Assembly (NCBI RefSeq): GCF_003952165.1
Contig: NZ_RXFT01000016.1
Location: forward strand, 62,001-126,000
DNA: 64,000 nucleotides
Source: Variovorax guangxiensis
GTDB lineage: Bacteria; Pseudomonadota; Gammaproteobacteria; Burkholderiales; Burkholderiaceae_C
Direction: 5' to 3'
A model generated the notes under the pieces. The model was not told the origin of the DNA, searched no databases, and saw nothing but the letters and a program-made list of their open reading frames with translations. Of this stretch, positions 12,478 through 61,660 are shown piece by piece. Position 1 is the first letter of the stretch. Each line of letters starts with the position of its first letter. A program made the position numbers and the translations under genes.

Positions 12478-12491
12478 TGGCGGAGAGTGTG
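12478..12491. repeat. Left attachment-site repeat (copy of tRNA-Ser 3' end)
   Basis: TGGCGGAGAGTGTG, identical to 61573-61586, which on the minus strand is the last 14 bases of tRNA-Ser including the CCA. The match ends at mismatches on both sides. Confidence 0.8.
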
Positions 12492-12642: not shown

Positions 12643-12731
12643 TTTTTTAGGGTGCCACCCGGTAAAATTTGGGCCTAAAAGCAGCCGCCTATTAGTTGCA
12701 AATCCAACAAGGTACAGCTAGGCCCAAAAAA

Positions 12732-16146: not shown

Positions 16147-16159
16147 CCGAAGGCTCGCC

Positions 16160-37409: not shown

Positions 37410-38333
37410 CTAACCTACGAACCGATTCTCGTTGTGCCAACGCAAGTAGGCTTCGCCGGGCCTGTGGTCCGGGTGTTCTGGCAGCCGAGACAGCGGCTGT
37501 CCGTGCAAACGGTAGTAGGCCTTGCCGTTGAACCATTCTTCGCGAATCCGGGGACTGACCTCGATGCGATGGTCCGGCGTGACAGTCACCAGACCAATGT
37601 CGAATAGCTTGTGAAAGTCGGAGCGCAACAACAGTCCGTTGGCGGGATCGTGCGGACCGCTTTCCGCATAGGGCTGGATGTGTGCCGCCTCCAACACGGG
37701 CAGGGTGGATTCACCCGTCAGCGCGCACCGGCGCTGGTAGGCATCTGTGACCAGCACGCGGAAAGCGCCTTGTCCGAGCCTGGGGCGCACTGGTATCGGT
37801 GCGCCATATCGCTCCGTCAATTCAGGCTCGCCGGCTCGCAGTGGCTCATTGAATAGAGCCATTAGTCTCGACTGCACCTCGGCCCAGAGTTGAGCTCCTG
37901 GTGGTTCGGCCGTGTCGTAGTACCGCCCGCGGACGATGTTGGCGGCAAAGTCGATCGGGTCAGGGATCCAAGCTTCACGCGTCCAGAAGAAGGGTTGTGC
38001 GAGCACTGTGCAGCCGATCTCGGGGTCCCTCACCGTGGGATCGACAAGCAGGCTGCGGATCATCTTTTCGAAAATGCCGCGCTGCGCCGCGCCGTTTTTC
38101 GGCCCGAAGGCCTCCCAGGCTATAGAGAGTGGCAGCGATGTTGACTTCACGAAATAGCCGCCGCCCGCGATGTGGTGATAAGGGCGTTTGAGCTTGAACA
38201 AGAACGGGGTGCCCGGTTCCAGCGCAGCGTAGGTGGCAGCGCCTCGGGGCTGCCAGAAGTTGACCTCGTCCGGGGCCGACTGGCTCAGAAAGTTGAACCA
38301 GGCATTGTCCGTTACCCCAGCCCAGAACTTCAT
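37410..38333 (-). CDS. HNH endonuclease with N-terminal accessory domain (distal operon gene)
   Basis: 307 residues. The C-terminal HNH block (about 200-280) reads CALTGESTLPVLEAAHIQPY then NGLLLRSDFHKLFD, the HNH_2/PF13391 pattern with the invariant His pair. The N-terminal 150 residues start MKFWAGVTDNAWFNFL and contain FKLKRPYHHIAGGGYF and AWEAFGPKNGA, a module I associate with predicted restriction nucleases; it may read a base modification (inference). It is last in the ten-gene operon, and its ATG overlaps the upstream HNH gene's stop by four bases (ATGA). Confidence 0.85.
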   Translation of the reverse strand: MKFWAGVTDNAWFNFLSQSAPDEVNFWQPRGAATYAALEPGTPFLFKLKRPYHHIAGGGYFVKSTSLPLSIAWEAFGPKNGAAQRGIFEKMIRSLLVDPTVRDPEIGCTVLAQPFFWTREAWIPDPIDFAANIVRGRYYDTAEPPGAQLWAEVQSRLMALFNEPLRAGEPELTERYGAPIPVRPRLGQGAFRVLVTDAYQRRCALTGESTLPVLEAAHIQPYAESGPHDPANGLLLRSDFHKLFDIGLVTVTPDHRIEVSPRIREEWFNGKAYYRLHGQPLSRLPEHPDHRPGEAYLRWHNENRFVG

Positions 38334-39127
38334 TCTCGATTCCCGATTACCACGTTCGAGCCTTCGCTGAAGCGCATACGGTGATATTGCAGGTAGCCTG
38401 TATGCTCGGGAGCCAGCCAACGCAACCGCATGGGGCGGTCGAGGCCGAGCAATTCGCCATCGCGGGCTGCGATCGAAGGCGAGACAAGCATCCGGCCCGT
38501 CTCGTCAAAACTGATTAGGAATCGATCGAATAGCGCGTCGAGGTGAGCGCATAAGAGGAACCCGTTGAAGACATCGAGCCGTTCACCATCGCTGGCGCAG
38601 TCCGCCCAGGGCTTGGCATGGCTGGCACGCAGCACTGCCGGAATGTTCACCTTTGTGATCGAACAGGCGCCGCCCCAATAGCCCAGCATCGCGGCGCGGA
38701 ATCTATCCTGCCCCACCCGCTGGCGCACTAGACGCTCCACCTCGGTACCACGGCTACCAGCGGGGAGATTTTTCAGCGCTTCCGCGACTTCAGCCTGGTA
38801 ATCCTGCTCCGCCTGGCTGGGCAGTGCCTGCGACAGGTTGGCAGCGCGGCGCAACAGCAAAGCCAGACCTGCCACGGTGGCAACATTGAACGAATCCACG
38901 GATGCCGCAGCGCCCCCTTCGAATGTGCGATGCAGTTCCGAAAGCAATGCAGGGGAAGCCGGTTGAAAAAGGATGTTGAAACCGCCACTGTGTGGCACCG
39001 ATACCAACGCGCAGGCTTGATGGCGCGCTGAAGCCATTGCAACCACGGCGGGCTCTTGCGCCAGCACATGCTCAAAGCCGTTGTCGTGGCCGGCTTTCTC
39101 GATCAGGGTGCGTTGCAGCGGATTCAT
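38330..39127 (-). CDS. HNH endonuclease (second of a tandem pair)
   Basis: 265 residues. The C-terminal part has ACSITKVNIPAVLRASHAKP followed by VFNGFLLCAHLDALFDRFLI, the same HNH_2/PF13391 type as the downstream gene but clearly diverged. The N-terminal 120 residues are unlike that gene's N-terminus: helix-rich, with an alanine-rich GLALLLRRAANLSQALP segment. Start and stop overlap the flanking genes by four bases on both sides, so it is translated as part of a coupled chain after the RNA ligase. Which DNA it cuts is unknown. Confidence 0.85.
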   Translation of the reverse strand: MNPLQRTLIEKAGHDNGFEHVLAQEPAVVAMASARHQACALVSVPHSGGFNILFQPASPALLSELHRTFEGGAAASVDSFNVATVAGLALLLRRAANLSQALPSQAEQDYQAEVAEALKNLPAGSRGTEVERLVRQRVGQDRFRAAMLGYWGGACSITKVNIPAVLRASHAKPWADCASDGERLDVFNGFLLCAHLDALFDRFLISFDETGRMLVSPSIAARDGELLGLDRPMRLRWLAPEHTGYLQYHRMRFSEGSNVVIGNRE

Positions 39128-39825
39128 CGTTGTTTACCGCTGCTTGAATCCACCCGATTCCATTCAATGGCGCGCTTGCGCCAATGCGTCTCAATGGCCT
39201 GCGCGAAGTCAGATCGAACAAGCTTCGCTCTGGCCTCGCACCATTGCTCAGACTCACGACGAATGACCACACCCTCCAGCGGCCCACAGCGATAGCGGCT
39301 GGTGGTTGTTGCCACCAATTGCTCCAGCGCAATAGCGGTGTACTTTCCACGCGCCACTAGGGGCACTGCGGCCAATTCTGCCGAGGCCGCTAGTACATTT
39401 CGGCGTGAACTGCTCCAGAAAAGCCCTGCGCGTCGCTCATACACATCAAACAGCAGAAACCAGTCCGGCAATGCAGCATAGTCCAGCGAATGGCGCGCGG
39501 CGCACCACTCGCCAAACAAGATGATGTCGGGTGTCAGAATGCAGTGCAGTGCGTCACCATGCTGGGCAAGCCATGCGGGTAGCCGGGCAAACTGCCCGGC
39601 ATGGGGTTCGGCTAAGTACTGCCCACGGTTCTGCGCTCGCAGACTGCCATCGGGCGCAAGCGAAAAGCCGAGATTGGCACCATCAAGCTTTTCCTCCACC
39701 ACCACGTCGCCGGCTAGTAAGGTATGGACCTCGGCAAACGAAAGCACCTTGTCATCGCGCGGATCGCCCTGACCGAACCAAGCCAAGTGTGGGGTGTGAG
39801 GGAAGCGGAAGAAGTTTCCATCCAT
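39124..39825 (-). CDS. RNA ligase (Rnl2-like nucleotidyltransferase)
   Basis: 233 residues. All signature motifs of ATP-dependent RNA ligases are seen in order: motif I VEEKLDGANLGF with the adenylated Lys46, motif Ia around RAQNRGQY (67-70), motif III IILFGEWCAA (near 105), motif IV LEGVVIRRE (near 185) and motif V RAKLVRSDF (near 200). This is a minimal catalytic core; Rnl2 itself has about 330 residues with a C-terminal domain that is absent. The family seals 3'-OH/5'-phosphate nicks in RNA. It is five bases from the PIN gene and overlaps the HNH gene by four. A role in repairing RNA cut by PIN, or by phage or host RNases, is inferred. Confidence 0.9.
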   Translation of the reverse strand: MDGNFFRFPHTPHLAWFGQGDPRDDKVLSFAEVHTLLAGDVVVEEKLDGANLGFSLAPDGSLRAQNRGQYLAEPHAGQFARLPAWLAQHGDALHCILTPDIILFGEWCAARHSLDYAALPDWFLLFDVYERRAGLFWSSSRRNVLAASAELAAVPLVARGKYTAIALEQLVATTTSRYRCGPLEGVVIRRESEQWCEARAKLVRSDFAQAIETHWRKRAIEWNRVDSSSGKQR

Positions 39826-39830
39826 AGCAT

Positions 39831-40358
39831 TCAGCCCGGTAGCTGGGGGGCCGGTTTTGCAGGGAACTTCTTGCCATAGAACGAGCAGGCGTCAGCCGCG
39901 CACAAAAAATCGACTTCAATTCCCTTTATCCGCAAGGCTGGCCACCAGTCCAGCCATTTGCAGTCTGCCGCTTGCCAGATCGTGGGCTTATCCGGGTGAG
40001 CATGGGCCACGGCGGCAAACTTCCGATCCGGTGCATCGAACATTGGTTCCAGCGCGGAGTCAGGGAACTCGGCGAAACAGTTTTCAGCAGTTTCGTTCAC
40101 CGTGACTTGTTCCACCAGCGCAGAGCCCGATTGCCGCAGCAGCCATTTCAGGAAGACATCCCCAACGCCCTTGGGCGGATTGAGACTGGTTTTGTGCTGG
40201 TACTCACCTAAAATTCGAAAACCATCGTCGATGACGGTAACTCCCCTCTGTTGCATGGTCTGCAGCCGCTTGACACATTCAGCGACGCATTCAGGAGAAA
40301 CATCTGCATGTTGGCCGTTGGCGACCAGGAGCACGTTGGTATCGATCACCGCTTTCAC
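39831..40358 (-). CDS. PIN-domain ribonuclease-like protein
   Basis: 175 residues. The fold-typical acidic residues appear in order: Asp6 in MKAVIDTNVLL, an acidic central region, then FDAPDRKFAAVAHA (near 110-123) and the terminal QAADCKWLDWW (near 130-140). PIN domains cut single-stranded RNA with metal ions; VapC-type toxins are the best-known members. It starts with GTG overlapping the stop of the ATPase gene by four bases (GTGA), so the pair is translationally coupled. No VapB-like antitoxin is seen; the ATPase may instead control it (inference). Confidence 0.85.
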   Translation of the reverse strand: MKAVIDTNVLLVANGQHADVSPECVAECVKRLQTMQQRGVTVIDDGFRILGEYQHKTSLNPPKGVGDVFLKWLLRQSGSALVEQVTVNETAENCFAEFPDSALEPMFDAPDRKFAAVAHAHPDKPTIWQAADCKWLDWWPALRIKGIEVDFLCAADACSFYGKKFPAKPAPQLPG

Positions 40359-41752
40359 AGAGCACCGCCTTGCTGGCTGAGCTCTTTCTTGCGTCGCATT
40401 GCCGCCAGGGTGCGACCTGCGATGTCGGCCATCTCGTCGCCGAAGAAGTGTTCGGGCCAGTTTTCGATCTCGCCAAACATGTTCAGTCGCAGCGGCTCCA
40501 GCTCAGTGGCTGAGCCTGCGCGGCGGCAAAAGTACACCGCCACATCTTCAGGTTTGACTACCCCTTCGGCGACTCGGCGCTGCAAGCGGTTCAAGAAATG
40601 CTCAGAGTGACTCTCCACAATCAGCTGCACGTTGCGCGGCTTTCCGCCTTCACGAGCCTGAGTCGCGGAAATGAATACGTCGGCCAACTCGGCCTGAACT
40701 TGCGGATGCAGATGGATCTCAGGTTGTTCCATCCATACGGTGGAATGCGGCGGGCAGTAGAACGCTTGCACCAACGCAGGCAGCACCTGAGAAATTCCAA
40801 AACCAACGTCAGTGATTTTCACCTCGGGTGCTTTGGCGTGCGTCTTCACCAGCACCTCGTATTCCTTGCGGCCCTCGGCCACCGGACGCACAGAAAAGTC
40901 GTGTATGACGCCCAGATCTTTGAGCCACGCCGCAATAAACTCGGCAAAGCCTTTGGTGTGGTGCCCGACCTGGCGGTTGAGTCGTCGGCCTTCACCTTGG
41001 GCCGCCAAAATGGCTGCCACCGCGTACTCGCCCATTTGCCCGACGCTGGCTGGCGTATCGCCTGACCACTGGTAAATCCGCTGCGGATGGCTGCGCAAAG
41101 GCCCCAAGTAAGAAATGCGCTCTAGCATGGCCTCGGTAGCCAGCGCGAAATCCGCCAGAAAACCGGCGTTCTTGTATCGTGCCATGCTGATATCGGACAG
41201 TCGGTAGAACTTCTCGGGCTCTTCCAACGGCCATTTGCGCCCGTCGGCCATCTTGAAGCCGTAGTGGTCAGAAGTCAGGTTGAGCTTGCGCTTCTCGTCG
41301 CGCTCAAGCGCAACGTCGAGTACCTCGTTGTCACCTGAAGCCAGGGCGTAGCGTAGTGCCTGAACTTCCGGTTGCTGCGCTTTGTTGGCGGCCAGCGTCA
41401 CATTCAGGTGCATGTGATCGCCCTCGTAACGAGACTCGATCTGTAATGGATCCCGGATCTCCATGGTCTTGGGCAGGAGCCAGCCAAGCTCAAAGGAAAG
41501 CGACTGTTTCAGATCGTGCCCATGCAGGCAATCTGTGAACGTGCCCAAGTCGATCAGTGACGAGGCATCACCCAGATGCAGCGCGCGCTTGCGATCTGTG
41601 GAGCGTGCCGTTTGTTGCAATGCCAGGAGCAGGTGGCCCAAGCTGCTCTTGCCCGCGCTGTTGGCGCCGAAGAGAACGGTGAGCGGAGCCAAGCGAATCG
41701 GTCCTGTATCTTTCCAGGCCTTGAAGTTCTTGATGTGCAGGTGAGTAAGCAT
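40355..41752 (-). CDS. DUF3696 AAA (OLD/ABC-like) ATPase
   Basis: 465 residues. An ABC-type P-loop FGANSAGKSSL lies at 28-38. The Walker B and catalytic region is VWMEQPEIHLHP (near 325-336), followed by the H-loop-like VESHSEHFLNRLQ (near 362) that is typical of overcoming-lysogenisation-defect-type ATPases. The C-terminal part fits DUF3696. ATPases of this kind occur with a nuclease or effector partner in several known defence systems, such as Septu, PARIS and Gabija. Here the overlapping PIN gene is the obvious partner. No DNA-cutting TOPRIM domain is visible. Confidence 0.87.
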   Translation of the reverse strand: MLTHLHIKNFKAWKDTGPIRLAPLTVLFGANSAGKSSLGHLLLALQQTARSTDRKRALHLGDASSLIDLGTFTDCLHGHDLKQSLSFELGWLLPKTMEIRDPLQIESRYEGDHMHLNVTLAANKAQQPEVQALRYALASGDNEVLDVALERDEKRKLNLTSDHYGFKMADGRKWPLEEPEKFYRLSDISMARYKNAGFLADFALATEAMLERISYLGPLRSHPQRIYQWSGDTPASVGQMGEYAVAAILAAQGEGRRLNRQVGHHTKGFAEFIAAWLKDLGVIHDFSVRPVAEGRKEYEVLVKTHAKAPEVKITDVGFGISQVLPALVQAFYCPPHSTVWMEQPEIHLHPQVQAELADVFISATQAREGGKPRNVQLIVESHSEHFLNRLQRRVAEGVVKPEDVAVYFCRRAGSATELEPLRLNMFGEIENWPEHFFGDEMADIAGRTLAAMRRKKELSQQGGAL

Positions 41753-41823
41753 TTATGCGATTCTCCTGGGTCCGATTTTTCTCTGCGGTGGACGTGCCAG
41801 TAGTCTGTGCGCGCTCCAGTTCC

Positions 41824-43767
41824 TCACGTCAACGGTCTCTGCTCTGCACCCACGCGGCGGCGAAGCAGAAGACCGTTCTCGCTGTCCGAAGAAAGCCTGA
41901 GACGCTCAAAGGGCTTGAACGCCTCGGCGGGCTCTGTCGAGGTGGTGACGATGTACTGGAAGGCATCGCTTTCGCCCGATGCCACGTGGCCCAGCAGAGC
42001 CCACAGCATGGACTCGCTCATCTCCGCCTCTCGCGGCGAGTCATGCAGAAGGAAGCCCGGATGAAGGCTTTCCGGAGAGGTGCTATCGATCAGGCAGGCA
42101 ATGTCTCCGGCCAGTATTTCGAGCACCTTGAAGGTCGTCGAGTGCATGGGCCCCATCTGGAACGGGCGGTTGCGGTGCTTGTCGTCATCGCTGAGCAGGC
42201 CCCAGTGAAATGAGGGGAGTGACTTGGCGACAGACTGCATCGCGGCACTGATGACCTGGCGGCGCCCTTTCACGGCGTCGCGCTCTTTGTCGAGCTGGAT
42301 TTGAAGCTGGCTATGGCGGCGCTGCGTCGATTCCAGTTGGCGCTCCAGCGTCGCGATCTCCGGTGAGGATGACTTGCCTGTGGCGATGTCTTCATAGAGT
42401 TCATAGTCCTCGATGGCATCGCTGAGAAGCTGGTCGGCGGACAGGGACTGTGCATGCCTCGTGGTCAGCGCGGCATCCCGCTGGTCGATGGCTGTCAGTT
42501 GCTCATTCATGGGGACCGCTTCGGTCTCCAGTTCGGCCAGGCGGCGACGCAGGGGCAGCAGCTCGCTTTCAAGCGTCTCTTTGGCGCGCTGATGCTGTGT
42601 GATGCGTTGTTTTCGGTCAATCTGCGTCTGCTCGATCCGCGTCATCACGTGACTGCAGTCCCTCAGCAAACGGTTTCCTGCATCGCAGCGGGTGGGTAGC
42701 TGTTGCTGTAAAGACGATGCCTCTTTTTGGAGCCTATCTACCTCTTGTATGTCACCGTCCGCCAACGCTTCCATTTGCTTGATCTCATTGGTCAGAAGAT
42801 CGATGCCAGCTTTCAGAGGCGCACGCTTTTCCATCCATGCCTGGCGCCGCGCCGCGAACTCTTGCCGCTCGGCATCGATGGTCAACAGTTCCTGTTGATA
42901 GGCCCCATGCCGCTGCTTGGCGATACCGATCAGATTCGGATGTTCAAGCAAACCATCTTGCCGGAACGGCGTTTGGGCTGAGACGTTCAGGCGGCGGGCC
43001 AACTGACGGCGAACGTGTTTCAGCAAGCGCCCGGGCTCCTCGCGCAGCGCTTGCAAATTTGCTTTGTGCTTTTCCAGCGCTTTGGCTGTGCCGTCCAGCT
43101 CGCGCAAAGTGGCGCCATCGGGCAGCAGGCCCAGCACGATCTGCATCAGCGCAGCAGGTGATTTGGCGGGCCAACTGAAGCCGGAGCCATCTGCGCGCCA
43201 CTGGTAATAGTTCTGATAACGGGCGTTCTGATCGCGTGAGCACCAGGCCAGAATCTGATGCCATTCGATGGACTGCTTGGACCCCGGCAGTTTCTGTACG
43301 GGCAGTATTTCCACCAGATGCCGCCGTAGCGCGGCCTGGTAGGCGGCGAATTCATTCTCAGCGCCATTGGCGGCCAGTTGCTGCCAGTCCGCCGTGCGCG
43401 ATGCGCGGTAGTGCTTCTGGTGCAGCCACGGCTTGACCACTGTCCAGGTTTCACCACCCACGTGCACACGCGCGGCGACAGCGCCCTCTTTCAGTTCGCG
43501 GCTGTGCAACAATTCATCGCGCAAGGTGGAGCCATCGGACCAGAGTGGGTCATCCAGCACAAAGCGTAGCAACTGACAGAACGCAGTTTTGCCCACGCCG
43601 TGCCCGGAGCTGCCCGTGCCTGGTGGCGACACGATCAGGTTCAGCCCACGCCGCAAGGGGATTTCGCGCAAGGGCTGGGTAGCTGTGAGCGAGTCCAGCA
43701 GCCACAGCGTTTCCACCCACAGACGGGGCTTAACCGAGTTTAGTGCAGAGATGCTGACGTCGCTCAT
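41824..43767 (-). CDS. SMC/Rad50-like coiled-coil ATPase
   Basis: 647 residues. The N-terminal P-loop is in SPPGTGSSGHGVGKTAF (48-63). Two long coiled-coil arms (about 255-345 and 365-525, with heptad-like EAVPMNEQLTAIDQRDAAL and ERQLESTQRRHSQLQIQLDK) flank a short hinge-like region with CDAGNRLLRDC, which could be a zinc-hook-like turn. The C-terminal lobe has a Walker B-like GFLLHDSPREAEMS (near 568). The layout is that of SMC/RecN/Rad50 ATPases, which bind or scan DNA. It is four bases from the methyltransferase gene, in the same operon. Confidence 0.85.
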   Translation of the reverse strand: MSDVSISALNSVKPRLWVETLWLLDSLTATQPLREIPLRRGLNLIVSPPGTGSSGHGVGKTAFCQLLRFVLDDPLWSDGSTLRDELLHSRELKEGAVAARVHVGGETWTVVKPWLHQKHYRASRTADWQQLAANGAENEFAAYQAALRRHLVEILPVQKLPGSKQSIEWHQILAWCSRDQNARYQNYYQWRADGSGFSWPAKSPAALMQIVLGLLPDGATLRELDGTAKALEKHKANLQALREEPGRLLKHVRRQLARRLNVSAQTPFRQDGLLEHPNLIGIAKQRHGAYQQELLTIDAERQEFAARRQAWMEKRAPLKAGIDLLTNEIKQMEALADGDIQEVDRLQKEASSLQQQLPTRCDAGNRLLRDCSHVMTRIEQTQIDRKQRITQHQRAKETLESELLPLRRRLAELETEAVPMNEQLTAIDQRDAALTTRHAQSLSADQLLSDAIEDYELYEDIATGKSSSPEIATLERQLESTQRRHSQLQIQLDKERDAVKGRRQVISAAMQSVAKSLPSFHWGLLSDDDKHRNRPFQMGPMHSTTFKVLEILAGDIACLIDSTSPESLHPGFLLHDSPREAEMSESMLWALLGHVASGESDAFQYIVTTSTEPAEAFKPFERLRLSSDSENGLLLRRRVGAEQRPLT

Positions 43768-43771
43768 AAGA

Positions 43772-46700
43772 CTACCCCTGCTTGCGTAACTCGTGGGACT
43801 GCACGGCCGATGTCGAACCGGCCAGCGTCTCTTTCAGCGCCGCCTCCCTCCGATCGCGGGCCTGGATCAAAGCGGTAGCCAATGACTGGGTGCGGTGATC
43901 GCCAATGACGTCGGCCAGCGCCTCCGGGTTGCGGATGGACAGGGGCGCGGTGATAGGAATGCCCAGCAGGTCATGCAGCCAGCCACGCATATGCCCCCAA
44001 CGCTCCGTATTCACGGGTGCCAGCCAGGAAGGCAACACCTCGACGGATGGTATGTTGTTGGGCAGCGGGGCCAACAGGATGAGCCGAAGGCGGCTGTCGT
44101 CGCACGGGCCGGCCTGTATGAGTACATCGCACACCAGGCCCGCCAACCAATCCTCGGCTTCGGAAGCCGGTGTGCCGCCCTTCAGATAGATAGGCAGCGG
44201 CACGGTGCGCCGCACCGGCTGGGGCGCCGGAATATTGACAGGGGGTTGCGCTCGCAGAGCGTCCCATGCCGCCAACACGAGCCTTTGCGTGCGGTATTCG
44301 CCCAGCTCGCGTAGCTCCTTATTCTTGAGCACGCGGAAGGTTTCGCTGGGGTAATCCTCGCCCATCACATCGGCGGGGTCGAGGATGTAGCGCAGTTCGT
44401 CTTGGGTGAGGCCGTAGAGCTTGGCGTAGTAGGCGTCGAGTTCGGCGCGTAGGATGGCGCGGCGGTCCGCATCGAAGGAAAAGGGCGGGCCGCCGTAGCC
44501 CAGGTCTTTGGCCCAGTCGACTAGGTCGTGAGCAACGTAGGTGAGTTCGAGTACCCGCGGGACGATATGGGCGAGATCGGCTTCGGTGTATCGGTCAGGG
44601 GGCAGGACAGGAAGCTGCTTGTAAATGAAATAGTTCATATGCGTGCCGCCCGTCTTGTGGCGAGCCACGAAGTCGAACACCAGCGCATCAAGGTTTCCCA
44701 GCAAGGCAGCAAACGGCCGCGAATCTTCACGCTCGGCAAACAACATGAGTGGCAATTGGTTTCCGACCCCTACCACCGGCATCACCGACGCAATCACCGT
44801 GCGTTCGTTGGTGGCATTGGTAATGTCTCGCCAGCCCATCAACCAGCCGTGCTGCGAACCCTTGTCGCTCAGGCGCTCTTCCACTTCACTGCGGTTGACC
44901 CAGTAACGCGGGGCGACGGTGAAATCCGCCGAGGCTTTTTCAATGGCGGTGACGTCGCGGCTGCCGCCATCTTCCGCGTAGGTAGCCCAGCGGTGGTCGA
45001 ACTGGTGGATGAGCTTGGCTTCATAAAGCGGTAGGCGATTGAGGGCAGGCGCGTCCTTGAACAGGTGGCTGTCATTCGACATGTGCAACATGGCCATGAA
45101 CGAAATGCCCCACGGGTTTTGCGCGGGCCTCACGGTCATGGCCTGCTTGCCCTCGCCTGCGATCACAGCGTCACGCATCAGCACTGGCGCGGCGCGATAG
45201 AGTTTCTTAGTCAGCTCCGCGTCGCGCTCGCTACGGAACACCGGGCAGGTCAGCGTGTTAGGGTTGATTAGGCGGAATTCGTCGGGCGTGAGGGCGAAGC
45301 GGCGGCGCGGGTCGGTTAAATCCTCAACAGACAACAGGTAATGCGCAAGATCGGCAGGGCCATCCGTTGCACCTATCGTCACGAGAGAAAACGGCGTGTC
45401 TGGATGAACCGAAGGGAAAATTCTTCTGGCGTTGTCGAAGCCAAATAGAGAAATCAGTTTCTGGTTGTTCACCAAGAACTGGAAGAATCTTTTCGTAGTG
45501 TCGTCGGTAGCAATGCCGGACGGAACGATGAAACCTCCTCGCCCTGTTGTTGAATGAATCTGCGAGATGGTCTCAGCAAACAGTGCATAGGTGTTCACAT
45601 CCCCTATACCTGTGAGCGGATAGCGGCCACCGTCTTCTTCGTTGACGTGGGCAAACAGGCTGGCGGCTTCTGCGGTGCGGCGTGCGCTGATGAATTCGCG
45701 GTAGATACGCTGCTCGGCCTCGTCCTCGTGCGCTTCATGCGCCAACTCGGGGTAGAGGTGGCGCGCCAGCATGCCTTCGCCGAGCCACTGGATGCGCTGG
45801 GCACGCTCGGCCTTGTTGCGGGCATCAAACACGTCGCGATGGCGGGTGGCGAAGAATTCTTCCTCCTGCAGCTTGATGCGTTCCCACGGCGGATTGGCCA
45901 GTACGCAATCAAAGCCGCCTTGCGCGAACACTTGCGGAAAGGCCAGCGGCCAGTGGAACACGCGGGCTTCTGCGCAGGCTTGTTTGGCGGCGGCCAGCGC
46001 GGGCTGCTGGTCGGCGGGTAGTGCGCTGCCCAGCAGGGTGAGGTAGAGCGTGGAGGTGGTCGGGATGGCCTGGGCCATGCCTTCGGTCTTGGGCAGCAGG
46101 TAGGCGCCTAGCAGCAGGTCGGCGGCCAGGGCCAGGTGGTGGTTGCGTGCGTGGCGCAGGTATTGGTCCCATGCATTGGCCTTGGCGGCGATCTGCTGGG
46201 TGCTGTCTTCGGGTAGGGCTTCTAGCGCTTGCAGTTCGGCTAGGCCGCTGGCGTTGTCGAGGTGCAAGCGACTTTGCGGGCTGGTGCGCTCGACGTTCAG
46301 TTGCTTCAGTGCGTGGGCATTGGCTTTGGCCAGTTGCTTGCAGATGTCCTTGTCGTCGCCGCTGAGGGGCTTGAAGGCCTCCTTGGCAATGCCGCGTTCC
46401 AGCGCATGCAGGTCGGTCAGGCCCAGCAGGGCGTCGCCCACCTGCAGGTGGTGTTCGAGAAAGCCCAAGGGGCGGCCTTCCTCGTAGCCCTCCAGCCACA
46501 GGGCCATGCGCGCGAGTTCGATCGCCATGGGGTTGCGGTCCACGCCGTAGATGCAGTGGGCCACCACTTCGCGCAGGGCATGACGGTAGTCCTGCGGCTT
46601 GATGGAGCCTTCCTGTCCGCCTTCGAGGCTACGCAGCTGTGCCAGCTTCTCCGCCAGGCGGCGGGCGGCGGCAAGCAGGAAGTGGCCGCTGCCGCAGGCG

Positions 46701-48331: not shown

Positions 48332-48391
48332 GGGCGTTGGTAACGTGAGAACGGTTGGGTGCGCGGCTTCTGGTGCATGGCTTCGTTTGAG

Positions 48392-51277: not shown

Positions 51278-51286
51278 GCGGATGGC

Positions 51287-54200
51287 TTAGCTGAAAACAT
51301 GGGGATAGCTGGCGAACTGTTCAGGCCAGTGCTGGGGGTTGGACATGTCCAGCACGGCTTGGCCTTTGTCCACCAGGGCCGCCACTTGGGCTGGGCTGGG
51401 CGGAGCCAGGACCACCACCGTGCGCGCGGCCTTGTATTGGCCTGCTACGGTGAGTTCGCCGCCCAGTGCAGGCACTTGATACTGATCGGGCTCGCGGTGA
51501 CTGCCGGCGCGCAGAGCTTGCTGCCATTGCATGAAGAGGTCGCCATGGCCTGCGCCAGGATTGGGTTGCATGACTCCGTTCGCCGTTGGCGCTGCGGCGC
51601 AAGGAGGCTGCTCTGGTTCCGCAGGCGCCACCTGCGCATTGGCCAGGGCCACGAGCATTTCAATGGCCTGGGCGTTGCGGCGGTTGATGTGGTTGTGGTC
51701 GGGCTGGTTGAAGTACGACAGCAGGCACTGGTAACAGCCGGCTTCGCAGATGCTCTGGCCGTGTTTGTTCTTGTGTTCCAGAGCATCCAGGCCTTCGACC
51801 GTCCAGGGGCCGGTGGGGGTATCGTGGTGCATCAACCGCAGTGCGGCAGCGGCAACCTGAGCCATGGCTCCCGGCTCCGTGGCCAGGCGCGTGAGCACGC
51901 CCGCACCGCCTTCGGCAGCCTCATAGAACAGCAGAGCCTTGCGGTCGTCCTGCTTGGGCAGGGATTCGGCCACGAGTTCGGACTCTTCAATCTGGAAGGT
52001 CATTTCAATGCCGCGCTTGAGCGCGGCCTGCAGCGTGGCCATGGCCTCCATGTCCAGGGGCATCCTGGGGGAGAGGATGAGGATGTTGCGGTGATCCTCC
52101 ACGAACGGCACGATTTGCTGGTTGGGCACCTTGTCCAGTAGGTCGCCTTCGGGTTCGGCTCCGTCTGTGGTGGCACCAGGCTCGTCCTTTTTGCTCCACT
52201 GTCCGGTGATGGGGTTGATATAGAAGCCGAGCTGCTCTTTGTATTTGCGACGGCGCCAGCCACGGTTGATGCGCCAGATTTGCGCCGCCGGGGCATAGGT
52301 CAGCGCCGCGAGGACGTCGGTTTCGCCGCTGCCACCCGCGCCGCCTAAGACGAGAGACTTGTGCTGCGCGATCTTGCCCTCGGGGCCGGGCAGGAAGCGG
52401 TAGGTGGTTTGCAGTTCGAAGCCCTGGCGCTGACGGTCTTCGTCATTGATGGAAATGCGCTCGACCGGCACGGTTTCCACGGTTTCGATGCGGTACAGGT
52501 TGCGCACCCAATCGAGGTCGGTGAGAAGGGCCTCGCAGTTCTCGCATGTGTTGTGGTGGGGTTCGGTGCCGTTCTCCTCACCCATGTGTGCGTAGCCGCA
52601 CTGGCTGCACACGCGGCTAGCCACTGTGGCGAGTGTGCTGTTGCCTGAGATGTGGTCGGCTGAGCCTACGTTGAGCTTGGCGCGCACCACGCGGTACATG
52701 CGACCCTGGTGGTAGATAAGGCTGCGTGGCCCGAACTCGGACAGGGCCAGGAAGCGCGGGCGGCTGACCATGCTGCCTTCGTCGTCCTTGCCTTTGGCTG
52801 TGGTACCGCCTTTGGCGGGTATCCAGGCCATGAGCGGCAGGCGTGGGAAGTTGTAGCCGGGCAAGAAGCCCTGGCTGGCAAGGTAGCGGTAGGTGTAGAA
52901 GTCGGCGTTCTGGCCATTGCCCGGCTTGAGCAGTACGGCGTACTGGCGGGCCGCGTCGCCATAGCGTCGCTGGGCATTCTGCTTTTCGGCATGGGTGGTG
53001 GTGTAGCTCTTGACCACCTGGTCGGCCATGTCCATCTGCTTGCGCGTGGCGTCCACGAGCACGCGCCAGCGTTGCAGGGCGGCATCGAAGTCTTGCGCTG
53101 CACGCTGAATGGCTTCTTCCACAAGGTTGGAAGAGAACCACGTGCTGCCTTGCAGCACCGGGGCGAGTTGGGCCATGAACGCATGGGCGCTTTGCAGGGC
53201 GCGTGCGTGGGCTTCGGGCGCCAGGAGCTTGTCACGCAGGGCGCTTTGCAGGGGCTTGCCTGGCTGCTCCAAATCCAGCAGTGGGCCTATGCTGGTGTCC
53301 AGTTGCACCTGAAGGGCCGCGAGCCATACAGCGTGCAGATGACTTTCGACCAAGTCCCGATTGGCCAGGTCCAGCGTCGGTGGTCTGACGATGCCATGCA
53401 CCATCTCGGTGGCATGGTGGAAGAACCATTGGTCGTGCGGACTGAGGGCCGCGCAATACGTGATGACCAGCGCCTGCTGGCCTGAGCGCCCGGCACGGCC
53501 GCTGCGCTGGGCATAGTTGGCCGGGGTGGGCGGCACATTGCGCAGGTACACCGTGTTCAGGGCCGAGATGTCCACGCCCAACTCCATGGTGGGTGAACAG
53601 AACATCACGGGCAGGCGTTCCAAGGGCGCCTCATGGGCGGGGTTGTCTGACCAGTCGCGGCGGTCTTTGTCTGTGTAACGGAAGCGCTGTTCCAGCAACT
53701 GGCGGCGGGTGGCATCCACCTGAGCGGTGTGCTCCTGGGCCTCGAAGTCGAACAGCGCATGGCCCTGCTGGCGTAGGGTTTGGGCCAATGCCAGGTACAG
53801 GTTGCGGAAGAACCGGTTGTGCTTGCCGTCTTCGGTGGCCTGTGTCTCCTCCACTAGCAGCCAGTCCATGGACGATGCGTTGAGACGCCAGCCAACGGTT
53901 TGCTGGTCCACCTCGGATCGTTGAACGTAGCCGTGGTCCTTCGCAGCCTGGAGCAGATGTTCCAGAAGTTCGACCCACTGCGGCTCTTTCCAACCCTTGA
54001 TCAGGGCCGAGGCACCGTCGCTCTTCCAGAAGTCCGCGGACTTGATGTCTTTCAGCAGGCGGGAGCGTGACCCGCCGGGAACCAGGTCGGTGCGGGGTTT
54101 GCCTTTGTACTCGGGACGCTTGGTCAGGATCAGGTATCTGGCGGTCTCCAGGTTTTCATCGGCCGCGAAGGCCCAGCGTTCATTCAAGTGCTGGTGCGCC

Positions 54201-56623
54201 GTGGCTCTGGCTTTTTCCTGTTCCACCGAATCCAGGTAACGGGTTTCCAGGCAGAGGTGGCGCCGCATGTGGTCGAACACCGTTCGCGCCAGAGAGGCCC
54301 GTTGGCTTGGCTCGATGGTGGCGAGTACGGAGCGACCTGTGAATAGCTGGGATTCCTGTGAGAACTCGTCCAACGCACGATAGGCGATGGAGAGCAGGTT
54401 CAATTGGTCGAGATTCGGATTGTTGAAGCGCCAGCCACGCCGCAGATCGCGCAGCAGACGGTAGCCAATGATGAAGCGCATGGTGCGCTGGGCATCCTGG
54501 CGTGCGAGGCCCATCAGCTTGGGGGTGCGCAGATACTCAGCCAGTGTGGCGAAGTCGGTCTGGTCGAAGCCCAGCGCCTTGAAGACCGCATCCGCGAGCA
54601 TTTCCTCGGTGAGCACGCCGTGGTGGTTCTGCAGCGCGCCAATGAGGGCTGAGCGCAGGGTGAGCAGAAACACGAAGTCGTTGAAGTGCCCGGCTTGCAG
54701 CGCGGCGTCCTGTCGGTTGTCGGTGAAGCCAAGAAGCTTGCGCGGATCGGGCTGGCCGGCCGGGATGTCCTTGATCGCAAAGAGTTGCCGGAGGGCACTC
54801 AGTGTCAGGATGGTCGTGGCCGAGGATCGACCCTCCCCCGACAGGCTGGCCAATCGGTTGATGTCCTTGCCGTGAACTTCATGAGTTTGGCCGCAGTTCA
54901 GACAGAAACGGAACTTGCCTGGAATGAACCAGTACTCCTTGCCCTGGCCTTGCACAGTCTGCAACCCCTGCGGTGTGACGCGGACATCTTCCGGGATGGA
55001 TTTTCGGTAGGTGCTTTTGACCTTGGGTTCGGCCTTCGCCAGATCCAGCCACGCTTCGGGCAGATCTTCAATGTTTCCACGGTAGGTCTGACGAATGTCG
55101 GCCGGACACAGGAAGCCGTAGCGCGCGTTTTCGTCGTCGTCCCCAGAGATGTCGTCGATTTCTCGGGGGGCGTATTCCACCTGCGACTGGCCAGAGCGCC
55201 ACACCGGGTGATATTCCTGTCCGCAATCGCGGCAGAAGTGAACGGGATAGAGCTGCGTGCCTTCCTCCTGCCGCCCCGGCGCGTAGCGCTGGGCATCCAG
55301 CGCGATGTGGCGCTCGCCTTCGGCTTCCAGGGTGGCCAGCACCTTGCCTGGCCCGCTGATGAACTGGTGGAGCTTGAAGGCAAATGGCGCACGGCCCTGC
55401 ACTGTTCGTACAGCATGTGCGGCAACCAGAAAACGCTGAAGCCCGGCGCTCGCTTCTTCAAAAGTGCATTGCGCATCACCAGCCAGCCGCAAGGCGGCAT
55501 CGCGCAGTGTCATGGGTTTGGCGCGGCGGGGCGGTTCGTTGGTTGGCAGTTCAATTCCAAGGTTCAGCTCAACCCACACAGCTAATGGGTCATCACTGAA
55601 GGCTGCGAAGTCCGGCCAGTGATGAACTTCTTTTAATAGCGCCGGCTTGAGTAGCGGCTTGACGGCAGGAATGCCTTTGCCTGGGTTCGTGACCCGCTCC
55701 AGGGTTTCGCCGATGACGTCGTTTTCAGAAATGTGCGCGCCAAAGAGCAGGCTGGCCACATCGGCAACAGTCTGGTTTCTGTCAGCCTGAGTGCCCGTGG
55801 ACGACATGGTGGCGGAAGTACCGATGCACACCAGTTGTTCGGCCTGCAGGCGCTCGCGCAGCCGTCGTACGAGCAAGGCCACGTCGGCGCCTTGCCGGCC
55901 TCGATAGGTATGCAGTTCGTCGAGGACAAGGAATTCCAGCCCTGCGCAATGCTCCACCACCTGCCGGTCCACCGCCTCAAATCGGGTCAGGATCAACTCC
56001 AGCATCATGAAGTTGGTGAGCAGGATGTCTGGCGGGTTGCTGGCGATTTCCTGCCGCTGCGTAGCGCTTTCCTGGCCGGTGTAGCGTGCGACTGTGAATG
56101 GCTTTTGATCTTCCGGGTAACCGTGCAGGAACTTGTCTAGTTCTTCCAGCTGGCTGTTGGCCAACGCATTCATGGGGTAGATCACGATGGCTCGAGTGCG
56201 CTTACTTGGGTCAGCTGCCTTGGCTCTCACGATGCGATCGATGATCGGGATGAAGAACGAAAGCGATTTGCCCGACCCTGTACCGGTAGTGACTACATAG
56301 CTTTGCCGGCTCTGGGCCTTGGCTAGCGCCTGCAGTTGGTGCACATACAGATGCAGATCTGCTGCCGCTCCCTCAGTCTTGCCCACCTGGAAAATATGCG
56401 CGCAATCGGCATGCAGCATGCCTTGCTGTGCCAATTGCTGAACTGTGGTGTCGCGTTTGTAGTTGGGGTTGATCTGGATCAACGGCTCAGGCCAGTAGCG
56501 GCCACGGGCATATTCCTGTTCAACCGTGCGAAGGATGTCATCGGATGCAATGCGGCTGAAGCTGCGGGAGAAGCTGCTGTATTCCGCGATCAGTTGATCT
56601 CTAAAACTGAAGACGTTGTCCAT
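51287..56623 (-). CDS. DEAD/DEAH-box helicase with DUF1998 (DrmA/DrmB- or DruE-like)
   Basis: 1778 residues. The N-terminal helicase has Walker A VTTGTGSGKSLSFFIPI (111-127), DELHTYRGRQGADVALLV (DEAH-like box near 234) and SGRAGRSGQQALVI (motif VI). Further on are zinc-type cysteines CSQCGY...CENC (near 1334-1370) and the DUF1998-type cluster CEAGCYQCLLSYFNQPDHNH (near 1620), typical of the MrfA/DrmB/DruE families. DISARM splits these parts between DrmA and DrmB, and Druantia DruE is a similar large single protein, so this may be a fusion of the DrmA and DrmB activities (inference). It starts 2 bases after the Fic gene's stop. Confidence 0.88.
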   Translation of the reverse strand: MDNVFSFRDQLIAEYSSFSRSFSRIASDDILRTVEQEYARGRYWPEPLIQINPNYKRDTTVQQLAQQGMLHADCAHIFQVGKTEGAAADLHLYVHQLQALAKAQSRQSYVVTTGTGSGKSLSFFIPIIDRIVRAKAADPSKRTRAIVIYPMNALANSQLEELDKFLHGYPEDQKPFTVARYTGQESATQRQEIASNPPDILLTNFMMLELILTRFEAVDRQVVEHCAGLEFLVLDELHTYRGRQGADVALLVRRLRERLQAEQLVCIGTSATMSSTGTQADRNQTVADVASLLFGAHISENDVIGETLERVTNPGKGIPAVKPLLKPALLKEVHHWPDFAAFSDDPLAVWVELNLGIELPTNEPPRRAKPMTLRDAALRLAGDAQCTFEEASAGLQRFLVAAHAVRTVQGRAPFAFKLHQFISGPGKVLATLEAEGERHIALDAQRYAPGRQEEGTQLYPVHFCRDCGQEYHPVWRSGQSQVEYAPREIDDISGDDDENARYGFLCPADIRQTYRGNIEDLPEAWLDLAKAEPKVKSTYRKSIPEDVRVTPQGLQTVQGQGKEYWFIPGKFRFCLNCGQTHEVHGKDINRLASLSGEGRSSATTILTLSALRQLFAIKDIPAGQPDPRKLLGFTDNRQDAALQAGHFNDFVFLLTLRSALIGALQNHHGVLTEEMLADAVFKALGFDQTDFATLAEYLRTPKLMGLARQDAQRTMRFIIGYRLLRDLRRGWRFNNPNLDQLNLLSIAYRALDEFSQESQLFTGRSVLATIEPSQRASLARTVFDHMRRHLCLETRYLDSVEQEKARATAHQHLNERWAFAADENLETARYLILTKRPEYKGKPRTDLVPGGSRSRLLKDIKSADFWKSDGASALIKGWKEPQWVELLEHLLQAAKDHGYVQRSEVDQQTVGWRLNASSMDWLLVEETQATEDGKHNRFFRNLYLALAQTLRQQGHALFDFEAQEHTAQVDATRRQLLEQRFRYTDKDRRDWSDNPAHEAPLERLPVMFCSPTMELGVDISALNTVYLRNVPPTPANYAQRSGRAGRSGQQALVITYCAALSPHDQWFFHHATEMVHGIVRPPTLDLANRDLVESHLHAVWLAALQVQLDTSIGPLLDLEQPGKPLQSALRDKLLAPEAHARALQSAHAFMAQLAPVLQGSTWFSSNLVEEAIQRAAQDFDAALQRWRVLVDATRKQMDMADQVVKSYTTTHAEKQNAQRRYGDAARQYAVLLKPGNGQNADFYTYRYLASQGFLPGYNFPRLPLMAWIPAKGGTTAKGKDDEGSMVSRPRFLALSEFGPRSLIYHQGRMYRVVRAKLNVGSADHISGNSTLATVASRVCSQCGYAHMGEENGTEPHHNTCENCEALLTDLDWVRNLYRIETVETVPVERISINDEDRQRQGFELQTTYRFLPGPEGKIAQHKSLVLGGAGGSGETDVLAALTYAPAAQIWRINRGWRRRKYKEQLGFYINPITGQWSKKDEPGATTDGAEPEGDLLDKVPNQQIVPFVEDHRNILILSPRMPLDMEAMATLQAALKRGIEMTFQIEESELVAESLPKQDDRKALLFYEAAEGGAGVLTRLATEPGAMAQVAAAALRLMHHDTPTGPWTVEGLDALEHKNKHGQSICEAGCYQCLLSYFNQPDHNHINRRNAQAIEMLVALANAQVAPAEPEQPPCAAAPTANGVMQPNPGAGHGDLFMQWQQALRAGSHREPDQYQVPALGGELTVAGQYKAARTVVVLAPPSPAQVAALVDKGQAVLDMSNPQHWPEQFASYPHVFS

Positions 56624-56625
56624 CG

Positions 56626-57723
56626 TTAGCCTCCTTGTTCTTCTTGGTGGCTGCTAGATGGTGCATCGGACGACGACGCGAACTCATACCAGACCCCCCG
56701 GCCAGCCCCGTGTTGCGCGAGATGGCCACGTTCCACTAAAACACGAAAATGCTGCTTGAGCGTGTTACGGTTGCCGGCAGTCAGCCGGATCGCATCGCCC
56801 ATGGTGATGCGCCCATGCTCCCGCGCGAACTCGACGATGTGTAGCGAGAGTTCGGGCAGTGCGGCGAGTACGATCTTCTCGCGCTCCACTTTGCGGCTGA
56901 GGCGACGAACCTGCTCCGCTAGCGCGCGTAGAAAGAAAATGAGCCAGGGCTGCCAATTCGGCGATTCCATACGGATGGTCCCCCGCGTCTGCCGCAGCGC
57001 CAGGTAGTAAGTCTCCTTGCTCTGCTCGATCACACTTTCGAGCGAGCTGTAAGGCACGTAGGCATAGCCAGCCTGTAGCAACAGCAAAGTAGTTAGGACC
57101 CGGCTCAAGCTGCCATTGCCATCTTGAAAGGGATGGATCTCCAGAAAGATCACGACCCAGATACCGATGAGCAGCAGGGGATGAAATCGTGCCGCATCGC
57201 GCTCTTCGTTGAACCAGGTGACCAACTCGGTCGTCAGGCGCGGCGTATCGAAGGGCGTCGAGGTTTCGAACACCACACCCAGTTGCTTGCCGTCTTCATC
57301 GAAGGCGACCAAGCTGTTCGTGGAAGTCTTGTAGTTGCCCCGGTGCCACGCGTCCTTCTCGCTATAGGTCAGCAAATCGCGGTGCAGCTGCTTGATGTGC
57401 TTCTCAGTCAGCGCGATGTCCTGCCAGGACGTGAACACTAGTTCCGTGACTTCGGCGTAGCCGGCCACTTCCTGCTCGTCACGAGTCGAGAAAGATTTGA
57501 TCTGGAGGTTGGACAGCAGGCGCTCGATCTCCTGGTCCGACAGGTTGCTGCCCTCGATGCGGGTGGACGAACCGATGCTCTCGATGGCGGCTACCCGGCG
57601 CAAGGCCGAGAGCCGGTCCGGTGCGAGAGCGCCGAGCGCGCGCCAAGCCCCCTTGAACTCGTCGATGCTGGCGATGAGCTTCAGGATTTCGGGGGTGATC
57701 CGGACAGCATTGGCGGCGATCAT
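56626..57723 (-). CDS. Fic-domain protein with altered active-site motif (first operon gene)
   Basis: 365 residues. The N-terminal inhibitory helix motif SSTRIEG (52-58) matches the (S/T)xxxE(G/N) signature of class II Fic proteins. The Fic motif reads HPFQDGNGSLSR (197-208): the catalytic His is present but the conserved Arg after GNG is Ser205 (codon AGC). The family's usual YVPYSSLE block follows, and a C-terminal winged helix (ITMGDAIRLTAGNRNTLKQH) ends the protein, so it could act as a regulator. Fic enzymes AMPylate proteins; the substitution may weaken this. I used the first ATG; a TTG 21 bases upstream would overlap the predicted -10 box. It leads the ten-gene operon. Confidence 0.88.
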   Translation of the reverse strand: MIAANAVRITPEILKLIASIDEFKGAWRALGALAPDRLSALRRVAAIESIGSSTRIEGSNLSDQEIERLLSNLQIKSFSTRDEQEVAGYAEVTELVFTSWQDIALTEKHIKQLHRDLLTYSEKDAWHRGNYKTSTNSLVAFDEDGKQLGVVFETSTPFDTPRLTTELVTWFNEERDAARFHPLLLIGIWVVIFLEIHPFQDGNGSLSRVLTTLLLLQAGYAYVPYSSLESVIEQSKETYYLALRQTRGTIRMESPNWQPWLIFFLRALAEQVRRLSRKVEREKIVLAALPELSLHIVEFAREHGRITMGDAIRLTAGNRNTLKQHFRVLVERGHLAQHGAGRGVWYEFASSSDAPSSSHQEEQGG

Positions 57724-61572: not shown

Positions 61573-61586
61573 TGGCGGAGAGTGTG
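61573..61586. repeat. Right attachment-site repeat, within the tRNA-Ser 3' end
   Basis: TGGCGGAGAGTGTG, identical to the left copy at 12478-12491. On the minus strand it is the tRNA's acceptor strand and CCA. Confidence 0.8.
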
Positions 61587-61660
61587 AGATTCGAACTCAC
61601 GGACGCTTTCACGTCGGCAGTTTTCAAGACTGCTGGTTTAAACCACTCACCCAACTCTCC
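61573..61660 (-). tRNA. tRNA-Ser(UGA)
   Basis: 88 bases including an encoded CCA. The acceptor pairs GGAGAGT with ACTCTCC. The anticodon TGA is at 61624-61626 in loop CTTGAAA, between stems GCAGT and ACTGC. A long variable arm (CGACGTGAAAGCGTCC) and the T-arm GTTCGAATC mark a serine tRNA. The gene is intact: the island copy has rebuilt its 3' end, as for most tRNA-targeting integrases. Confidence 0.95.

What the first reader, a model, noticed from the sequence alone, without database searches (positions are those of the whole stretch)
37410..57723. Ten-gene, 20-kb operon combining DISARM-like parts with two ATPases, a PIN nuclease, an RNA ligase and twin HNH nucleases
Ten genes run on one strand with gaps of 72 bases or less and four-base overlaps at three junctions. 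Class 1 DISARM is known to use a SNF2 helicase, an N6-adenine methylase and DrmA/DrmB (helicase and DUF1998). Here the two helicases and methylase are present, but the usual DrmC phospholipase is absent. Instead there are a Fic protein, an SMC/Rad50-like ATPase, a DUF3696 ATPase overlapping a PIN nuclease, an RNA ligase and two HNH nucleases. I know of no named system with this set. A plausible working model is sensing of unmodified DNA by the helicase/SMC module, cutting by HNH, and an RNA-level second line (inference).
Basis: partly seen in the sequence, partly recalled or inferred. Interest (0 to 1): 0.92.

Follow-up and report, generated by a model that had tools for sequence, protein, structure and literature searches.

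The report
ARMADA defence operon with exchangeable cassettes
This operon is a variant of a recently named anti-virus system (ARMADA) whose DNA-cutting job appears to have passed from a decayed helicase domain to a separate HNH enzyme, and which carries swappable extra modules, one of them pairing an RNA-cutting enzyme with an RNA-sealing enzyme.

Summary
The ten-gene operon is real. Its core (YprA/DUF1998 helicase, SNF2 helicase, PglX-type methylase) matches ARMADA Type I, named in a September 2025 preprint (PMC12458937), not DISARM (no separate DrmB, no DrmC). Comparing 57 loci, the window included, gave four results. (1) The C-terminal Vsr nuclease that the preprint calls active in ARMADA has lost its catalytic signature here; a separate HNH gene follows in 33 of 35 testable Vsr-lost loci, against 2 of 11 Vsr-active. 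Few evolutionary events underlie this. (2) Between methylase and HNH lies a cassette slot: operons with cores 93-97% identical carry different cassettes, with breakpoints at the methylase 3' end and the HNH start codon. (3) The SMC-like ATPase always comes with an in-frame 159-219-residue methylase tail (13 of 13 with SMC; 0 of 36 without). (4) DUF3696 ATPase, PIN nuclease and RNA ligase form a mobile module also found without ARMADA; PADLOC knows the first two as HEC-03, and the ligase is frequent but optional. The whole sits on a 49-kb tRNA-Ser island. Mechanism is inferred, not tested: a new variant of a known kind.

The parts
56626..57723 (-). Fic protein (HPFxDGN motif and an SxxxEG inhibitory-type motif, both read by eye), optional upstream accessory
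   Evidence: Pfam Fic 2e-12; PADLOC SoFic 2e-41. Of 28 clade-A loci listed (window included) have a Fic ORF ending within 10 bases of YprA; L012 has one overlapping the called YprA start and G056 a broken one
51287..56623 (-). YprA-family helicase with fused MrfA-type Zn domain (ArmC-like); decayed Vsr-like C-terminus at about residues 1690-1778
   Evidence: DEAD 4.8e-26, MZB 6.6e-10; DruE models 3.9e-92; C-terminal alignment
48392..51277 (-). SNF2/RapA (BrxHII-like) helicase (ArmA-like)
   Evidence: PADLOC DpdE 2.5e-211 and DrmD 3.2e-91, labels of a library older than the name ARMADA
43772..48331 (-). PglX/Eco57I-type DNA methylase (ArmB-like, NPPW by eye) with 159-residue C-terminal tail
   Evidence: Eco57I 4.6e-19; DrmMI 1.2e-66; tail
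41824..43767 (-). SMC-like ATPase (LmuB/DUF2326-like), cassette 1, coupled to the methylase tail
   Evidence: LmuB 3.1e-11; DUF2326 0.0026, below its cut-off
40355..41752 (-). DUF3696 OLD/AriA-like ATPase (HEC-03B), cassette 2
   Evidence: HEC-03B 6.6e-131, AriA 1.6e-22
39831..40358 (-). PIN nuclease (HEC-03A), cassette 2
39124..39825 (-). ATP-dependent RNA ligase, cassette 2
   Evidence: PF09414 5.5e-32; K46, D48, G49, E184, G185 and K201 in 16 of 16 homologues
38330..39127 (-). HNH1 endonuclease, last gene conserved in this lineage
   Evidence: HNH_2 6.5e-12
37410..38333 (-). HNH2 endonuclease, optional extra gene
   Evidence: HNH_2 1.2e-12; homologue beside HNH1 in one relative, G175
12696..13994 (+). 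tyrosine integrase of the island
   Evidence: Phage_int_M 2.3e-26, Arm-DNA-bind_3 4e-21, Phage_integrase 2.4e-13
12478..12491 (.). putative att copy TGGCGGAGAGTGTG beside the integrase
   Evidence: direct repeat D11
61573..61660 (-). tRNA-Ser(TGA); its 3' end (61573-61586) is the other att copy

Best explanation
It is an ARMADA Type I restriction-like defence operon of an HNH sub-lineage. Core (inferred by analogy with the tested Type II system): the PglX-like methylase with variable segments marks self DNA; the SNF2 and YprA helicases act on unmarked phage DNA. Shown here: the nuclease domain fused to YprA has lost its catalytic signature, and a separate HNH gene follows in the operon. Inferred: HNH1 now does the cutting, and was recruited before the fused nuclease decayed. 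Between methylase and HNH1 is a slot for exchangeable cassettes (shown). Here it holds two. One is an SMC-like ATPase with a methylase tail that comes only with it (association shown; docking inferred). The other is a DUF3696 ATPase/PIN/RNA-ligase module, inferred to be a PARIS-like sensor and RNA cutter that backs up the core, its cuts resealable by the ligase.
For: Core order YprA-SNF2-MTase with fused DUF1998; the preprint's Type I definition. Vsr signature (DF.Y and DGP.H or DGT.H) kept in 12 loci by script, plus pChlh scored by eye, and lost in the window and 40 others; three active tails match DUF559 (1e-3, below cut-off; 2.5e-5; 4.8e-5), the window tail nothing. HNH1 in 33 of 35 testable Vsr-lost loci against 2 of 11 Vsr-active (Fisher 2.5e-6). 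The 6 plasmid records with HNH1 at 80% coverage or more all also hold the ARMADA SNF2. Cassette swaps: L008 against L009, L010, L011 and G312 is 93-97% identical in the core, stops at L008 16372-16410 and resumes at 18844/18845, the HNH1 ATG. Relics in the slot: ligase fragments in pAcal and L017, ATPase fragment in L017. Methylase segments that fail to align between near-identical cores. SMC and tail: 13 of 13 against 0 of 36, 12 of 12 independent pairs. Triad: 10 of 10 testable high-scoring ligases follow the ATPase.
Against: No function of any gene here was tested. The Vsr/HNH contrast is only 2 independent pairs on the tree, so the Fisher value overstates it. The two trees disagree on the order of clades, so 'HNH first, Vsr loss later' is weak. 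The model of the decayed domain found no significant PDB match; the loss rests on sequence. G175 keeps both nucleases; two Vsr-lost loci (L020, pKoz) lack a clear HNH1. HEC-03 without a ligase exists: G013 and G133 and 3 of 12 plasmid records; 2 of 11 plasmid ligase records (31% identity) have no PIN match. No sequence named ARMADA by its authors was in the tree.
Confidence: 0.72

Rival explanations
1. The ten genes form one obligate multi-subunit machine, with the helicase/SMC module sensing DNA, HNH cutting and the RNA parts acting together.
For: Tight gaps and three 4-base overlaps; the SMC is coupled to a methylase tail.
Against: None of the other 56 loci shows all ten (some are cut short); the accessory genes vary among operons with near-identical cores; the ATPase-PIN-ligase triad also lives without ARMADA.
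Confidence: 0.1
2. The operon is just a crowded defence island: ARMADA core plus unrelated systems that landed next to it, with no functional link between cassettes and core.
For: Triads without ARMADA, a TA pair (pAcal) or a Schlafen-like gene (L011) between SNF2 and methylase, a GmrSD-type gene after HNH1; embedding of defences inside others is a known pattern (Payne et al. 2024, seen only as cited in passages of PMC12988326).
Against: The SMC cassette comes with an in-frame methylase tail in 13 of 13 loci; HNH1 accompanies the lineage; in the near-identical cores compared, the swap borders are the same.
Confidence: 0.2
3. The RNA ligase is not an antidote but an effector or a counter-measure: it repairs host RNA damaged by phage or by another system, or joins phage RNA.
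For: It is absent from some HEC-03 copies and so not obligatory for self-protection; T4 Rnl1 with Pnk repairs PrrC-cut tRNA (passage in PMC12409363).
Against: Pairing with two divergent PIN subfamilies (26-31% identity) points to the PIN product as substrate; PIN cuts are expected to leave 5'-phosphate and 3'-OH (recalled), which such a ligase can use directly.
Confidence: 0.35

Closest known systems
ARMADA Type I (Bell et al. 2025 preprint, PMC12458937; seen: abstract and outline, part 1 of 3 of section 4, sections 8 and 26, search passages)
   Same: YprA helicase with fused DUF1998, BrxHII-like SNF2 helicase and PglX-like methylase in that order; carried on tRNA-targeting islands
   Different: Vsr domain decayed here; separate HNH1, SMC with methylase tail, ATPase-PIN-ligase and Fic: in its main text HNH occurs once, in the reference list; SMC, Fic and RNA ligase not at all. 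Its supplements were not read
DISARM Class 1
   Same: SNF2 helicase, adenine methylase, YprA-like helicase
   Different: no separate DrmB, no DrmC phospholipase D
HEC-03 (PADLOC, Hma-embedded candidate)
   Same: HEC-03B 6.6e-131 and HEC-03A 1.1e-23
   Different: an RNA ligase follows; the copy that fits the model best (G133, 251 bits) has none in the stretch read
PARIS (AriA/AriB)
   Same: AriA-like ATPase beside an RNase; likely guard logic (inference)
   Different: PIN in place of Toprim effector; RNA ligase added
Lamassu / ABC-3C SMC-like ATPases
   Same: LmuB models 3.1e-11, DUF2326 below cut-off
   Different: no Lamassu effector shown; partner appears to be a methylase tail
HARP (protein-only RNase P; PIN-type fold recalled) with Rnl3 RNA ligase (PMC12153264, part 1 of 3 read)
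   Same: an RNase gene co-localised with an RNA ligase gene
   Different: other ligase family (PF18330), no ATPase, tRNA maturation context; the paper says the pair is mostly not co-linear

Membership tests
ARMADA Type I | YprA-like helicase with DUF1998 in one protein | tested here: met
   DEAD and MZB domains in one 1778-aa ORF
ARMADA Type I | gene order YprA, BrxHII-like, PglX-like methylase | tested here: met
   definition
ARMADA Type I | YprA falls in the authors' Type I clade | not tested
   reference WP_108720193.1 was not available here; assigned by gene order and fused domain
ARMADA Type I | predicted active C-terminal Vsr nuclease (the preprint's description, not stated as defining) | tested here: not met
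   signature lost in the window and 40 other loci, kept in 12 (13 with pChlh by eye)
ARMADA Type I | BrxA-like insert after RecA1 of YprA | not tested
   named in a passage of the preprint
ARMADA Type II | GajB-like helicase fused to a RelE-like domain as fourth gene | tested here: not met
   no such gene among the ten; a GajB-like ORF (35790-37346) is on the other strand
DISARM Class 1 | separate DrmB (DUF1998) gene | tested here: not met
   (PADLOC lists show the best 25 per protein)
DISARM Class 1 | DrmC phospholipase-D nuclease | tested here: not met
   no PLD nuclease family in the Pfam scans of the ten
Druantia | DruE with DruH, DruA-D, DruM/F/G or similar partners (recalled) | tested here: not met
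   only DruE-like similarity; no partner among the families shown (best 25 per protein)
HEC-03 | HEC-03B ATPase plus HEC-03A adjacent | tested here: met
PARIS | Toprim AriB nuclease beside AriA | tested here: not met
   PIN fold instead
Lamassu | LmuB with effector LmuA (recalled) | tested here: not met
   no LmuA among the families shown (best 25 per protein)

The most novel reading that the evidence does not exclude
The ATPase-PIN-RNA ligase triad is a reversible RNA-level immune system: an activated PIN enzyme cuts a cellular RNA to stall the phage, and the partner ligase reseals the same cuts once the threat is gone. The antidote repairs the damaged target and does not bind the toxin. In this operon it guards an ARMADA core that has handed its nuclease from the helicase to an HNH protein.
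Probability: 0.3. Interest if true: 0.85.

Novelty: new variant of a known kind. Interest (0 to 1): 0.62.

Why it matters
It indicates that ARMADA operons evolve as a chassis: a fixed self/non-self core, a replaceable nuclease, and a cassette slot with sharp borders that accepts whole defence modules. The methylase tail that comes only with the SMC-like ATPase is a direct lead to how SMC-type sensors are coupled to restriction cores. The PIN-RNA ligase pairing makes a sharp question testable in one experiment: can a defence RNase be paired with its own repair enzyme?

Tried and rejected
Rejected: DISARM (no DrmB or DrmC), Druantia, Lamassu and PARIS membership. Rejected: a strict rule that HNH1 and active Vsr exclude each other, because G175 has both and G223 has a C-terminal HNH1 half 7.7 kb past the methylase.

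Led nowhere: fold search of the decayed YprA C-terminus gave no significant PDB match (model pLDDT 77.2, pTM 0.56). The methylase tail matched nothing in Pfam or PADLOC. Sequence search of PDB gave no useful match for the ligase, none for the SMC, and one OLD-family match (0.002) for the ATPase. An attempt to find the end chemistry of PIN cuts in a VapC paper (PMC13273310, passages) failed, so that point stays recalled. Literature: (DISARM, Druantia, HNH, RNA ligase, Fic, SNF2; five of six terms) 0 papers; (HEC-03, Hma-embedded candidate, DUF3696) 4 papers, of which one (PMC13356809) names HEC-03 once and was not opened; (RNA ligase with PIN and defence terms) listed 6 and 12 of 40 papers, none by its title or abstract start a PIN-ligase defence system; some searches gave listings only. 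Passages of PMC13092281 and PMC12988326 were seen: no RNA ligase in either. The library lacks most subscription papers.

Trees: the first (LG+G4, 57 rows) joins the Vsr-active group C and pHydro (9 rows, 99) and leaves its order with A and B open. The mixture-model tree of 36 rows contradicts this: it splits C and joins A and B (100). Both are quick searches with SH-aLRT and no bootstrap. On the first tree HNH needs 4 changes and Vsr 2.

Rows dropped: one hit of the class search (G650, cut at a contig end) was not used. The plasmid search found 63 records, 40 were listed and 12 fetched. Of 19 genomes with a ligase match the context was read for the 11 with 190 bits or more. Vsr/HNH table: of 57 loci, left out were L006, L007, L016, L018, L025 (lost, too little downstream), G286 and pRmuc (active, likewise), L014, G605, G750 (no readable YprA end) and L026 (no methylase), leaving 46. 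pChlh was scored active by eye although the script called it lost. G288 was scored HNH-positive on a second contig that starts with a methylase end; linkage inferred. L019's HNH1 is cut at the contig end. L020 has a weak HNH-like ORF (53 bits) that was not counted. G286 has an HNH1 on another contig beside a gene 84% identical to the one before HNH1 in G175; not counted. SMC/tail: 49 of 57 loci had a readable methylase end; in L014, L016 and L025 fewer than 600 bases follow it, so SMC absence is less sure there.
Full report
WHAT WAS CHECKED. The ten minus-strand genes at 37410-57723 are present, tightly packed, with three 4-base overlaps. The PIN protein has no Pfam match; the call rests on PADLOC HEC-03A, on D6, E52, D108 and D111 in 16 of 16 homologues (D132 in 15 of 16), and on a confident model whose best match is a VapC, at E 3e-3.

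IDENTITY OF THE CORE. PADLOC gives the SNF2 protein a DpdE label (2.5e-211), the big helicase DruE labels and the methylase DrmMI. This mixture is what a 2023 library would show for ARMADA, named in 2025 (PMC12458937): YprA helicase with fused DUF1998, then a BrxHII-like helicase, then a PglX-like methylase, is Type I. DISARM is excluded because DrmB is not separate and DrmC is absent. Placement in the authors' clade was not tested by tree.

RELATIVES. The SNF2 protein brought 24 named loci, 16 of 399 genomes of the order, 7 of 369 of the class (both counts include the window's genome) and 63 plasmid records, of which 12 were fetched. With the window, 57 loci entered the tree.

NUCLEASE HAND-OVER. 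In some relatives, the outermost ones included, YprA ends with a Vsr/DUF559 domain bearing DF.Y and DGP.H (or DGT.H); the window and 40 other loci lack these acidic and histidine residues and about ten residues of that loop. It is kept in 12 loci by script and in pChlh by eye. Three active tails match DUF559 (1e-3, below cut-off; 2.5e-5; 4.8e-5), the window tail matches nothing. HNH1 stands downstream in 33 of 35 testable Vsr-lost loci: 29 on the same stretch, L005 and L017 just past the fetched stretch by coordinates, pHydro across the plasmid origin and G288 on a second contig. The two without are L020 and pKoz. Of 11 testable Vsr-active loci two have HNH1 (G175; a half copy in G223) and nine do not; the held assemblies of L023 and L024 have no match at all. 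Fisher p is 2.5e-6 but the tree holds only two independent contrasts, so this is a pattern of few events. In the mixture-model tree the G175 group is sister to the two Vsr-lost clades (support 87), and the HNH-bearing branches, pHydro included, join at a node of support 99. On that tree the simplest story is HNH first, Vsr decay later, in two lineages. The larger tree without the mixture model groups pHydro and all of group C together (99) and does not support that order. So the order is a hypothesis.

CASSETTE SLOT. L008, L009, L010, L011 and G312 have cores 93-97% identical to L008 at DNA level, yet between methylase and HNH1 they carry SMC; an NA37 gene plus unknowns; an unknown plus the ATPase-PIN-ligase triad; an unknown plus an AAA-like gene (below cut-off); and a diverged SMC (27% identity). 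Homology stops at L008 16410 (16372 for G312) and resumes at 18844/18845; 18845 is the first base of the HNH1 start codon. L021 and G237, which have the same SMC cassette as L008, align straight through it. Relics in the slot: ligase fragments in pAcal and L017 and an ATPase fragment in L017. Two methylase segments also fail to align between these cores, as expected if recognition domains are exchanged. A second slot lies between SNF2 and methylase: Schlafen-type AlbA_2 gene in L011, Phd/VapC pair in pAcal.

SMC CASSETTE. In 13 of 13 loci with the SMC-like ATPase the methylase has an extra C-terminal 159-219 residues; in 36 of 36 without it the tail is at most 30 residues (49 of 57 loci were readable). 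On the tree this gives 12 independent pairs, all concordant (the tail state was entered as equal to the SMC state, as observed). Of 8 plasmid records with an SMC match, 5 also hold the ARMADA SNF2 and a sixth shows the ARMADA core beside it; two were not examined. The tail matches no known family. That it docks the SMC protein is inference.

ATPASE-PIN-LIGASE MODULE. Of 399 genomes of the order 19 have a ligase match; the 11 with 190 bits or more were read. Ten have the DUF3696 ATPase upstream; the eleventh (G096) is at a contig end. Four lie in ARMADA operons (own, G228, G095, G200 at a contig edge), one follows ARMADA relics (G100), five show no ARMADA core in the fetched stretch (G338, G205, G063, G107, G303) nor an SNF2 match. 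HEC-03A occurs in 10 of 399 genomes: 7 with the ligase next to it, 2 without (G013, G133), 1 at a contig end. In plasmids 9 of 12 records with the PIN gene also have the ligase (Aeromonas 6, Azotobacter, Tistrella, Rhodococcus), in one of them 1.6 kb away and partial; 3 Acinetobacter records lack it; 2 of 11 ligase records, at 31% identity, have no PIN match. In the five plasmid regions read no ARMADA core is annotated, though in Azotobacter a short helicase ORF precedes the triad. Ligase residues K46, D48, G49, E184, G185 and K201 are in 16 of 16, so it should be active. PIN enzymes are expected to leave 5'-phosphate and 3'-OH ends (recalled; the same ends are reported for AriB of PARIS, PMC12409363, passages), which an ATP-dependent ligase can seal without end repair. 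This is the basis of the reversible-damage model, which remains untested. The nearest precedent found is HARP with Rnl3 (PMC12153264, first third read).

ISLAND. The operon lies on an island of about 49 kb: a 14-bp copy of the tRNA-Ser 3' end at 12478-12491, a tyrosine integrase at 12696-13994 and the tRNA at 61573-61660. A stricter search with 24 bases of the tRNA end, up to 3 mismatches, found no second copy, so the repeat is short. G+C is mostly 0.52-0.65 inside against 0.66-0.69 in the first 12 kb. This fits the tRNA-targeting elements described for ARMADA islands in PMC12458937.

VERDICT. Real; core known; a well-supported new variant with an exchangeable cassette slot, a coupled SMC-methylase tail and a likely nuclease replacement. 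Mechanism is by analogy with the tested Type II system and by chemistry, not by experiment.

Noticed in passing
window 20178-32268 (-): Two-partner secretion pair: a 3193-aa TPS/filamentous-haemagglutinin protein and its ShlB transporter, with a small ORF between them (DUF416, below cut-off); possibly a contact-dependent inhibition type locus (the last is a guess).
   Followed up: no
window 14132-16828 (-): DUF4268 protein, NYN-LOTUS protein and an unknown ORF in a row inside the same island.
   Followed up: no
window 35790-37346 (+): GajB-like UvrD helicase on the opposite strand directly past the operon's end; the two plus-strand ORFs before it (one with a phage Rep match below cut-off) have no GajA match.
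   Followed up: no
L008 19626-21341, L011 21978-22784, G175 15610-17373: A GmrSD_N gene sits directly after HNH1 in L008; ORFs with the same first residues follow in L009, L011, G237 and G312, and a similar one precedes HNH1 in G175.
   Followed up: partly
L159 3465-7915: An HNH2 relative follows a type ISP restriction-modification enzyme on a Mesorhizobium plasmid, so HNH2 is not tied to ARMADA.
   Followed up: partly
L174 2909-5489; L173 7-1496: The ATPase-PIN-ligase triad and a ligase-HNH1 pair occur on IMG/VR contigs, suggesting spread on phage-like elements.
   Followed up: no
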